From Tyzzerella sp. (GTDB lineage: Bacteria > Bacillota > Clostridia > Lachnospirales > Lachnospiraceae), in contig JAFQDE010000005.1 of the NCBI GenBank assembly GCA_017416155.1, forward strand, positions 1 through 64,000: DNA of 64,000 bases. The letters are read 5' to 3'. The notes beneath the pieces were generated by a model. The model did no database searches. It saw only the letters and a program-made list of their open reading frames with translations, and was not told the origin of the DNA. This document shows, piece after piece, positions 12,471-13,035 of the stretch (positions are counted from its first letter, which is position 1; the number at the start of each line of letters is the position of its first letter). The position numbers and the translations under genes were made by a program.

Positions 12471-12657
12471 TCATCCAAAAATCACCTCCCGTATTTGTTC
12501 TGCAGTTACTTCATCTAAACCAACACCATGTTTTATTGCAAAACTTGGAACCTTCAACCAACTTTTCACCACAATTAGAACAGTATATGTATTTCTTTTC
12601 TTCCGTAATTGCATCCTGCCATTTTGGATTGCTATGCTTATTTGACTTTTTCGGAAT
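12471..12657 (-). pseudogene. Zinc-ribbon protein remnant
   Basis: On the minus strand, beginning right after a stop and with no start codon, one frame reads SNKHSNPKWQDAITEEKKY followed by a CxxC zinc knuckle (YCSNCGEKLVEGSKFCNK). The frame then breaks where the second CxxC should be and resumes in another frame as HGVGLDEVTAEQIREVIFG with a stop at 12471. This looks like the tail of a zinc-ribbon domain protein that has lost its start and carries a frameshift. Confidence 0.45.
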
Positions 12658-12671
12658 TTATATAAAATATC

Positions 12672-12810
12672 TTGAATTTTATTATTAGTAGTGTTATGAT
12701 GACTATATAAAGAGAGCACCCACTCCAAAGTGGATGCCTCTCCAGTTGGTTTAAATGTCCTTACGGACACCGCCTATCCTGTTGGCCGACAGGATAGGCA
12801 TTTTTATTTT
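12672..12810 (+). ncRNA. Putative antisense RNA antitoxin of type I system, with promoter and terminator
   Basis: A near-consensus promoter is visible: TTGAAT at 12672-12677, a 17-bp spacer, TATGAT at 12695-12700, giving a start near 12707. About 100 bases on, a perfect 11-bp stem (GCCTATCCTGT with ACAGGATAGGC, 12772-12799) is followed by ATTTTTATTTT, an intrinsic terminator on the plus strand. The transcript contains no credible coding frame and runs convergently into the 3' end of the small toxin gene ending at 12804. This is the arrangement of RatA/TxpA and SR4/BsrG antitoxin RNAs. Existence of the RNA is inferred. Confidence 0.65.
12701..12743 (-). terminator. Probable terminator of the toxin mRNA
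   Basis: Stem GAGAGGCATCCACT with AGTGGGTGCTCTC (one bulge, one G-U pair), then TTTATATAG on the minus strand. It would end the toxin transcript after about 95 bases of overlap with the antisense RNA. Confidence 0.55.
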
Positions 12811-12920
12811 CGCTTCTTTCTCTTTTGGAGAAAGGTTAGCAACGCTAGTACAAACATACCAATAGCGACCATTAAGGAAGCTATGGCTAAAATCGTCGAA
12901 ACAATTTCAAAAGCTGTCAT
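12804..12920 (-). CDS. Small holin-like type I toxin peptide, 38 aa
   Basis: The peptide starts MTAFEIVSTILAIASLM, has one transmembrane helix to about residue 31 and ends in a basic tail (QKRKKRK). Length, the N-terminal MTxFE, the single helix and the charged tail match the putative holin-like toxins (Hol_Tox family, relatives of TxpA/BsrG). GGGAGGT precedes the ATG by about seven bases. Its own promoter (13007-13035), a 5' leader that can pair with the Shine-Dalgarno, and a convergent antisense RNA at the 3' end support a type I toxin. Such peptides insert into and depolarise the membrane. Toxicity is inferred from family. Confidence 0.72.
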   Translation of the reverse strand: MTAFEIVSTILAIASLMVAIGMFVLALLTFLQKRKKRK

Positions 12921-12927
12921 CACGCCA

Positions 12928-12972
12928 CCTCCCTATGTATTCCGGCAAGCCGGTTTGCATAAACTAGGGAGG
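12928..12972 (-). promoter_or_regulatory. Shine-Dalgarno-sequestering stem in toxin leader
   Basis: In the minus-strand leader CCTCCCTA (12972-12965) can pair with TAGGGAGG (12935-12928), an 8-bp stem that buries the toxin ribosome site. A self-complementary CCGGCTTGCCGG sits in the loop. Type I toxin mRNAs commonly need processing or refolding before translation. Confidence 0.65.
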
Positions 12973-13006
12973 CTACCACCCTGTCATGGGTACTCTCTGT
13001 AAGACT

Positions 13007-13035
13007 ATTTTAGCACTCGAGAGAACCTTTCACAA
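13007..13035 (-). promoter_or_regulatory. Toxin promoter
   Basis: TTGTGA at 13035-13030, a 17-bp spacer and TGC-TAAAAT with the -10 at 13012-13007 (extended -10). The start is predicted near 13000, giving a leader of about 80 bases. Confidence 0.7.

What the first reader, a model, noticed from the sequence alone, without database searches (positions are those of the whole stretch)
12672..13035. Complete-looking type I toxin-antitoxin locus: 38-aa membrane peptide with convergent antisense RNA
Every expected part is visible. The toxin has an extended promoter (TTGTGA-17-TAAAAT), a leader with an anti-Shine-Dalgarno stem (12928-12935 with 12965-12972) and a one-helix basic-tailed peptide at 12804-12920. 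The opposing strand has a promoter (TTGAAT-17-TATGAT) and a terminator hairpin about 100 bases later, overlapping the toxin 3' end. This resembles TxpA-RatA and BsrG-SR4, with an added translation lock. Short peptides and antisense RNAs of this kind are usually missed in annotation, and the locus sits in an eroding accessory stretch where such modules persist.
Basis: partly seen in the sequence, partly recalled or inferred. Interest (0 to 1): 0.75.

Follow-up and report, generated by a model that had tools for sequence, protein, structure and literature searches.

The report
Gut-bacterial membrane toxin with RNA antidote
A 38-residue membrane peptide and a small RNA that probably silences it look like a toxin-antitoxin pair found in many Lachnospiraceae gut bacteria; the RNA is missing from the public RNA-family library, and relatives preserve matching changes at both ends of the toxin message, which suggests an on/off RNA switch.

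Summary
The window has a 38-aa Hol_Tox peptide (12804-12920, -) and an antisense RNA from the opposite strand (about 12707-12805, +), each with promoter- and terminator-like sites. It is a conserved module: 48 of 397 family genomes match the peptide and 74 of 397 the antisense model at E<=1e-7 (104 at E<=1e-3); of 398 genomes drawn from the phylum only the window's own does. Rfam has no match in the window but does hold the closest analogue, BsrG. Antisense RNA and toxin leader share one 5' motif, so the toxin mRNA's own ends are complementary, and loci keep this by compensatory change (42 double changes against 15.1 expected, 0 of 5000 permutations). Folding predicts a switch: in full-length mRNA the leader's anti-SD tends to pair with the 3' end; when antisense RNA covers that end, the SD is harder to open (52 of 54 loci). 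This is BsrG/SR4 logic carried by one bifunctional leader segment. Transcription, toxicity and the switch were not tested at the bench.

The parts
12672..12700 (+). antisense RNA promoter-like site TTGAAT-17-TATGAT, TG before the -10
   Evidence: family: 48 of 55 loci have a >=9/12 promoter match upstream of the antisense RNA, Markov control 13.7% (in that scan the window's own pick was an equal-scoring neighbouring site)
12707..12810 (+). antisense RNA (antitoxin); model hit span, 3' end expected about 12805
   Evidence: model R1 110.9 bits, E 1.8e-30 (the window locus is one of the 53 training rows); covariation in 53 loci
12716..12737 (+). antisense hairpin I; its reverse is the toxin's terminator-like hairpin
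   Evidence: reverse terminator 12738-12715; 59 of 60 scored loci have >=5 T in the next 9 nt
12756..12769 (+). antisense hairpin II (UGUCC/GGACA)
   Evidence: all 5 pairs have compensatory changes, but only 82.1% of cells are paired
12772..12799 (+). antisense terminator hairpin, T-run reaching the toxin stop codon
   Evidence: 8 of 11 pairs with compensatory changes
12804..12920 (-). 38-aa Hol_Tox membrane peptide (toxin), ATG at 12920, stop 12804-12806
   Evidence: PF16935 28.9 bits, cut-off 23.3; relatives differ mostly at third codon positions
12928..12933 (-). Shine-Dalgarno sequence GGGAGG
   Evidence: sequence; conserved in relatives
12967..12972 (-). anti-SD CCUCCC in the leader, shared between the lock and the 5'-3' helix
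   Evidence: lock helix 96.8% of cells paired in 52 loci
12942..12953 (-). leader hairpin CCGG-CUUG-CCGG
12977..12992 (-). leader 5' hairpin UACCC/GGGUG, loop AUGACA
   Evidence: 85.1% of cells paired
12918..13002 (-). structured toxin leader
   Evidence: model R2 78.5 bits, E 1.9e-21 (training row)
12962..13001 (-). 5' arm of the 5'-3' helix of the toxin mRNA
   Evidence: inverted repeat I1, 73% complementary
12708..12747 (-). 3' arm of the 5'-3' helix (3' end of the toxin mRNA, complement of the antisense 5' end)
   Evidence: leader model R2 also finds this stretch on + at 18.7 bits, E 0.0025
13007..13035 (-). toxin promoter-like site TTGTGA-17-TAAAAT, TG before the -10
   Evidence: 31 of 54 loci have a >=9/12 match, Markov control 8.5%

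Best explanation
A type I toxin-antitoxin module of the Hol_Tox/BsrG kind that works by a two-state mRNA switch. Shown by sequence and comparison: a small membrane peptide under coding constraint; a conserved structured antisense RNA of about 100 nt complementary to the toxin mRNA's 3' part from the stop codon on; and co-evolving complementarity between the toxin mRNA's 5' leader and its expected 3' end. [quoted passage not shown] When the full mRNA is finished its ends pair, the anti-SD is drawn into the end-to-end helix and the SD becomes easier to open, so toxin can be made. When the antisense RNA is present it takes the 3' end, the anti-SD falls back on the SD, translation is shut, and the duplex is presumably cut by RNase III. 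The peptide presumably damages the membrane or envelope when the antisense RNA runs out.
For: Hol_Tox match above cut-off. Coding constraint: 101/38/187 differences at codon positions 1/2/3 in 19 pairs of relatives. Antisense structure: 86 double-changed cells against 25.8 in shuffles, 15 of 24 pairs with compensatory change. 5'-3' complementarity: own ends pair better than those of other loci (mean -44.9 against -36.9 kcal/mol, double-centred excess -7.9, 0 of 20000 permutations, 55 loci). In 24 disjoint sister pairs 42 positions changed on both sides and stayed paired, permuted mean 15.1, maximum 32, 0 of 5000, and 3-20 at shifted registers. Folding: the 5'-3' helix (>=10 pairs) forms in 54 of 54 full-length mRNAs; the lock (>=4 pairs) in 16 of 54 full-length, 53 of 54 without the 3' 62 nt and 52 of 54 with the antisense region covered. 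SD opening costs a median 4.4 kcal/mol full length against 8.2 covered, easier by >0.5 in 52 of 54; for the whole start region 48 of 54. 59 of 60 scored loci have a T-rich tract after the reversed hairpin, so the toxin mRNA plausibly ends there. SR4 is reported to extend the SD-sequestering stem of bsrG from 4 to 8 bp (PMC7430163, passages), and bsrG folds with the same kind of end-to-end helix.
Against: No transcript, toxicity or probing data. In the predicted full-length form the SD is still mostly paired (mean open probability 0.22) and the lock persists in 16 of 54, so the 'on' state may be weak or need processing. One locus runs against the trend for the SD and two for the start region. 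Own ends pair no better than the row mean in 3 of 55 loci (L027, L039, L066). The lock helix shows little covariation (1 of 7 pairs with double changes), and for the leader structure as a whole the counts of double changes are not above those of partners slid by 1 or 2 columns (16 cells against 20 and 16). Gene conversion between the inverted arms could mimic co-evolution. 3' ends were not mapped. Some relatives depart: L004 has lost the upstream leader motif, and L043, L047 and L065 have insertions with no SD left near the start. 18 of 43 further antisense loci have no toxin-like stretch in the DNA held.
Confidence: 0.6

Rival explanations
1. Type I toxin-antitoxin pair in which the 5'-3' helix is the OFF state, as in hok and aapA: the closed full-length mRNA is stable and silent, and 3' trimming is needed before translation; the antisense RNA removes the trimmed form.
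For: Full-length mRNAs of 54 of 54 loci close end to end with a median advantage of 18.5 kcal/mol, and the SD remains mostly paired in them. An interaction of this kind silences aapA1 and aapA3 (PMC6733600, passages).
Against: Here the 3' end pairs with the leader's anti-SD, not with the SD. Removing the 3' end is predicted to make the SD harder to open (51 of 54 loci), the opposite of what trimming does in aapA. The antisense RNA covers the part that trimming would remove.
Confidence: 0.2
2. The antisense RNA acts only by promoting RNase III decay (RatA, SR5 style); the similar 5' ends serve stability or another purpose and the SD switch has no role.
For: About 100 nt of complementarity at the 3' end, as in txpA/RatA and bsrE/SR5; SR5 is reported not to change the bsrE SD region (PMC6562991, passages).
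Against: The leader's anti-SD and the register-specific co-evolution of the two ends are kept across the family, which decay alone does not ask for.
Confidence: 0.13
3. The peptide is not a toxin but a small membrane peptide with another role, controlled by the same antisense RNA.
For: No toxicity data. The Pfam name is a putative one; NCBIfam ComI (competence inhibitor) is the best but far sub-threshold match (18.4 bits, cut-off 55).
Against: Same Pfam family, size, organisation and predicted RNA logic as BsrG, whose unrepressed expression is reported to lyse cells (PMC7430163, passages). Antisense loci without a toxin-like stretch (18 of 43) fit the expected order of decay of such a pair.
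Confidence: 0.05
4. A dead remnant in this genome: the module is real in the family but no longer expressed here.
For: The neighbouring frame 12471-12770 has no family match and the stretch looks eroded; only 1 of the 9 other genus genomes searched has a match.
Against: Promoter-like sites, terminator, SD, lock and frame are all present in the window; 110.9 and 78.5 bit model hits (training rows).
Confidence: 0.02

Closest known systems
bsrG/SR4 (Bacillus subtilis SPbeta prophage)
   Same: Hol_Tox peptide of 38 aa; an mRNA of reported 294 nt against about 293 nt expected here; antisense RNA convergent at the 3' end; SD in a local stem; main helix joining 5' and 3' parts of the mRNA; antitoxin binding is reported to extend the SD stem (PMC7430163, PMC6562991, passages).
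   Different: No detectable RNA homology: Rfam BsrG RF01412 finds SPBc2 at 210.4 bits and none of the six other loci tested. Antisense RNA about 100 nt against 180 nt. Here the whole anti-SD lies inside the arm of the end-to-end helix.
txpA/RatA (B. subtilis skin element)
   Same: Small membrane toxin; about 120 nt of complementarity at the 3' ends; RBS in a stem; RNase III dependence reported there (PMC3531473, PMC6562991, passages).
   Different: 59-aa toxin, 222-nt RatA (PMC7430163, passage); decay is the main mechanism reported; RNase III not tested here.
bsrE/SR5
   Same: 3' overlap; mRNA fold reported to be similar to bsrG (PMC7430163, passages).
   Different: SR5 is reported not to change the SD region; 30-aa toxin.
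aapA/IsoA (Helicobacter pylori) and hok/sok
   Same: 5'-3' long-distance interaction of the toxin mRNA and metastable SD hairpins (PMC6733600, passages).
   Different: There the long-distance helix is the silent state and contains the SD; here it contains the anti-SD.
Clostridioides difficile type I pairs (CD-RCd)
   Same: Type I pairs with convergent RNA antitoxins in Clostridia (PMC6563280, abstract and section 3).
   Different: That review reports no sequence homology between their toxins and those of B. subtilis; I compared no C. difficile sequence.
par/fst RNA I-RNA II (pAD1)
   Same: Convergent RNAs in a Gram-positive type I pair (recalled).
   Different: Recalled, not tested: fst repeats are direct, so that its RNAs are complementary at their 5' ends; here the repeat is inverted, so the 5' ends are alike.

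Membership tests
Pfam PF16935 Hol_Tox | profile score above the curated cut-off | tested here: met
   28.9 bits, cut-off 23.3; of 4 other peptides from the searched genomes 3 pass and 1 (L023) misses by 1.8 bits (one of the 4 is the other-type locus L007)
Type I toxin-antitoxin system | small membrane peptide with one hydrophobic helix and basic tail, under coding constraint | tested here: met
   sequence read by eye; codon-position differences 101/38/187 in 19 pairs (changed codons: 134 synonymous, 123 not)
Type I toxin-antitoxin system | antisense RNA antitoxin that base-pairs with the toxin mRNA | tested here: inconclusive
   by sequence met: overlap of the 3' ends, conserved structure in 53 loci, promoter-like sites; transcription and pairing not shown
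Type I toxin-antitoxin system | peptide is toxic and the RNA prevents it | not testable with these tools
   needs expression
BsrG/SR4-type dual-function system | antitoxin binding lengthens the SD-sequestering stem | tested here: inconclusive
   predicted: SD opening 4.4 to 8.2 kcal/mol (medians), harder in 52 of 54 loci; not probed
BsrG/SR4-type dual-function system | main helix between 5' and 3' parts of the mRNA | tested here: met
   54 of 54 predicted folds, co-evolution 0 of 5000 permutations; depends on the unmapped 3' end
Rfam RF01412 BsrG | covariance-model score above gathering | tested here: not met
   no Rfam match at gathering in the window; no BsrG match up to E 1 in L007, L022, L029, L055, L064 or L141, with SPBc2 at 210.4 bits as positive control
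hok/aapA-type long-distance OFF switch | 5'-3' helix sequesters the SD; 3' trimming opens it | tested here: not met
   predicted opposite: SD harder to open after 3' removal in 51 of 54; prediction only

The most novel reading that the evidence does not exclude
A conserved RNA switch in which one leader segment is both the anti-SD and part of the end-to-end helix: the antitoxin RNA carries a copy of the toxin leader's own 5' motif, competes with that leader for the mRNA's 3' end, and so shuts translation from about 180 nt away by letting the leader close its own ribosome site. If right, this silencing at a distance, known in weaker form from BsrG/SR4, would be the standard regulation of a large, uncatalogued toxin-antitoxin family of Lachnospiraceae gut bacteria.
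Probability: 0.5. Interest if true: 0.62.

Novelty: new variant of a known kind. Interest (0 to 1): 0.52.

Why it matters
Lachnospiraceae are major gut commensals (recalled). My full-text searches found no paper that joins Lachnospiraceae, type I toxin-antitoxin and antisense RNA (0 papers) or putative holin-like toxin and antisense RNA (0); those for Butyrivibrio and Roseburia gave 4 listings of 3 papers, none about such a system by title and start of abstract. The library lacks most subscription journals. The antisense RNA has no Rfam 15 match in the window although 74 of 397 family genomes carry it at E<=1e-7, so it would be a new RNA family and would let annotators find these short peptides. 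The co-evolving ends make a question about type I systems, whether a 3'-binding antitoxin controls translation by refolding the mRNA, directly testable with paired mutations.

Tried and rejected
Second copy in the genome: rejected, C25 is a redundant contig. fst-like direct repeats: rejected, the repeat is inverted. Shared identical hairpin as the reason for the similar 5' ends: unlikely, because the two stems lie at shifted positions and the middles differ in most loci (AUGACA against UCCAA); in the divergent loci L013, L014, L019, L032 and L068 the middles are more alike. Gene conversion: not excluded, but in most loci the middle of the motif stays different between the arms, which simple conversion would erase. 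Plasmid or phage cargo: no peptide match in 72,556 plasmid records (E<=0.1) or 50,697 phage records (E<=1); 3 IMG/VR contigs carry the antisense motif, 2 of these also the leader (in the third, L139, the DNA held ends too early to tell). Rfam Ref55: E = 4, chance level. RNAalifold on A1 predicted only 14 pairs and left out hairpin II; I wrote a 24-pair structure from row L029 and counted it, and did the same for the leader. The plain register test was replaced by the permutation test, because baseline pairing differs between registers. Jahn and Brantl 2013 is not held, so BsrG/SR4 details come from passages of reviews.

Full report
What is there. The peptide at 12804-12920 (-) is a 38-residue one-helix protein with a basic tail and passes the Pfam Hol_Tox cut-off. 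The antisense RNA starts near 12707 on the + strand and ends in a strong terminator whose T-run reaches the toxin stop codon. Both have promoter-like sites with TG before the -10. The antisense RNA is far more stable than shuffles (z = -6.15). The anti-SD stem of the leader is exact. The leader alone is not unusually stable (z = -1.39). Neither RNA was shown to be transcribed.

A conserved family. The peptide search finds 48 of 397 genomes of the family at E<=0.001, but only 2 of 10 in the genus at E<=0.01, the window's own among them. From these searches I extracted 64 loci, and leader and antisense RNA are strikingly alike in most. Differences between 19 pairs of coding sequences fall 101/38/187 on codon positions 1/2/3. 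An alignment of the antisense RNA (53 of the 64 loci; 11 left out for insertions or divergence) shows 86 double-changed cells against 25.8 in shuffles and 15 of 24 pairs with compensatory change. Its model finds 74 of 397 family genomes at E<=1e-7 (counted from the table) and 104 at E<=1e-3, where the weakest hits may be plain terminators; 40 of 392 order genomes at E<=1e-7, of which 35 belong to the window's family, 4 to family f17 and 1 to f7; and only the window's own genome among 398 drawn from the phylum. That family f1 is Lachnospiraceae is inferred from these titles and from equal contig lengths (for example G230:C1 and a Clostridium fessum contig, both 1,087,076 bases). Rfam has no match in the window at gathering; as positive control it finds BsrG in SPBc2 (210.4 bits).

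The hidden feature. The 40 nt at 12708-12747 and 12962-13001 are an inverted repeat (local alignment score 36, best of 2000 resamples 33). Because the two RNAs converge, they share one 5' motif, and if the toxin mRNA runs on to the reversed antisense hairpin, its 5' and 3' ends are complementary. That it runs so far is supported by a T-rich tract behind the reversed hairpin in 59 of 60 loci scored (3 more could not be scored and L024 was left out; background 15% of 9-mers), but 3' ends were not mapped. The leader model itself finds the antisense 5' end in the window (18.7 bits, E 0.0025).

Co-evolution of the two ends. Among 55 loci each leader tends to pair better with its own 3' end than with those of other loci (median rank 6 by row and 4 by column, 27 expected; 3 of 55 loci go the other way). 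To reduce the effect of relatedness I formed 24 disjoint sister pairs from 48 loci (7 of the 55 left out: leader insertions or two-hairpin antisense RNAs). At 42 positions both sides had changed and pairing held in both loci; reassigning antisense pairs gave a mean of 15.1 and a maximum of 32 in 5000 permutations; without the divergent loci (21 pairs) 32 against 12.7, again 0 of 5000. The alignment of the two arms was made jointly, which could favour matches, but the permutations use the same alignment. Gene conversion between the arms is not excluded.

The leader lock. SD and anti-SD are paired in 96.8% of cells in 52 of the 64 loci, but the SD is bound to be conserved for its own sake, and only 1 of 7 pairs shows double changes. 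For the leader structure as a whole, 16 cells have double changes against 4.7 in shuffles, yet 20 and 16 when partners are slid by one or two columns. The lock is thus conserved and strong, but not proved by covariation.

The switch. In predicted folds of 54 mRNAs the end-to-end helix always forms, with a median advantage of 18.5 kcal/mol. The leader lock on the SD is present (>=4 pairs) in 16 of 54 full-length folds, 53 of 54 without the last 62 nt and 52 of 54 when the antisense region is covered. Opening the SD costs a median 4.4, 8.5 and 8.2 kcal/mol in these three states, and is easier by more than 0.5 in full-length mRNA than in the covered one in 52 of 54, harder in 1; for the wider start region 48 easier and 2 harder. 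The full-length SD is still mostly paired (mean open probability 0.22). So the direction of the switch is consistent, its size modest and its reality untested.

Comparison. Reviews report that SR4 binds the bsrG 3' end, extends the SD stem from 4 to 8 bp and that RNase III cuts the complex (PMC7430163 and PMC6562991, passages). The bsrG mRNA of SPBc2 folds with the same kind of end-to-end helix, and so does the other Hol_Tox-like locus of this genome (L007, duplex -61.8 kcal/mol, with assumed transcript ends). BsrG is in the same Pfam family. The new family is therefore BsrG-like in peptide and in predicted logic, but its RNAs do not match BsrG's Rfam model. In aapA and hok a long-distance helix silences instead (PMC6733600, passages); here the helix takes the anti-SD, not the SD.

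Decay and mobility. Of 43 further antisense loci 25 have a toxin-like stretch and 18 have none in the DNA held, which in some is cut by a contig end. Of the 25, 17 pass a crude test of an open frame with a Met and a stop, and by eye at least five of those (L082, L104, L113, L123, L125) look shortened or altered. Some leaders carry a palindromic insertion, and L043, L047 and L065 have no SD left near the start. The peptide has no match in the plasmid and phage collections, while 3 IMG/VR contigs carry the antisense RNA, one just before terminase-like genes (L141, judged by eye from the translation).

Verdict. By sequence evidence alone, a real, widespread type I toxin-antitoxin family of Lachnospiraceae that Rfam does not hold, with comparative support for a refolding switch of BsrG/SR4 type built around one shared anti-SD.

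Noticed in passing
L007 (G000:C35:55636-55707 and flanks): A second Hol_Tox-like locus of another kind (27 aa, 25.5 bits) with its own convergent hairpin-rich strand and the same predicted end-to-end complementarity of the toxin mRNA (duplex -61.8 kcal/mol).
   Followed up: partly
leaders of L015, L042, L043, L045, L047, L065: A palindromic element of about 50 nt inserted in the toxin leader, in five of the six just after the 5' hairpin's GGG and in L065 at the SD; L043, L047 and L065 have no SD left near the start.
   Followed up: no
L083, L086, L097, L106, L108, L138 among others: Antisense RNAs with no toxin-like stretch beside them (18 of 43); in L138 leader and antisense ends lie nearly back to back with no toxin between them (read by eye).
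   Followed up: partly
L118, L120-L122, L124, L128, L130-L133: A shorter, divergent toxin subgroup (such as MDISDAISLMLTFGIFLIALLTYIDRNNKRK) next to weaker antisense hits.
   Followed up: no
L141 5724-6044: The module sits on an IMG/VR viral contig just before terminase-like genes, so phages of this group may carry it.
   Followed up: partly
window 12471-12770 (-): Frame with no Pfam or NCBIfam match; another frame of the same stretch reads like a decayed zinc ribbon (read by eye, motif recalled), consistent with an eroding stretch.
   Followed up: no
L027, L043, L049, L060, L066: Antisense RNAs with an extra 5' hairpin of about 25 nt; in four of the five (not L043) the leader has lost the matching GU/GC part of the motif.
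   Followed up: no
G000 contigs C25 and C43: The assembly carries near-identical redundant contigs (for example a one-residue difference in the LacZ-like protein), so it mixes strains or duplicates sequence.
   Followed up: no
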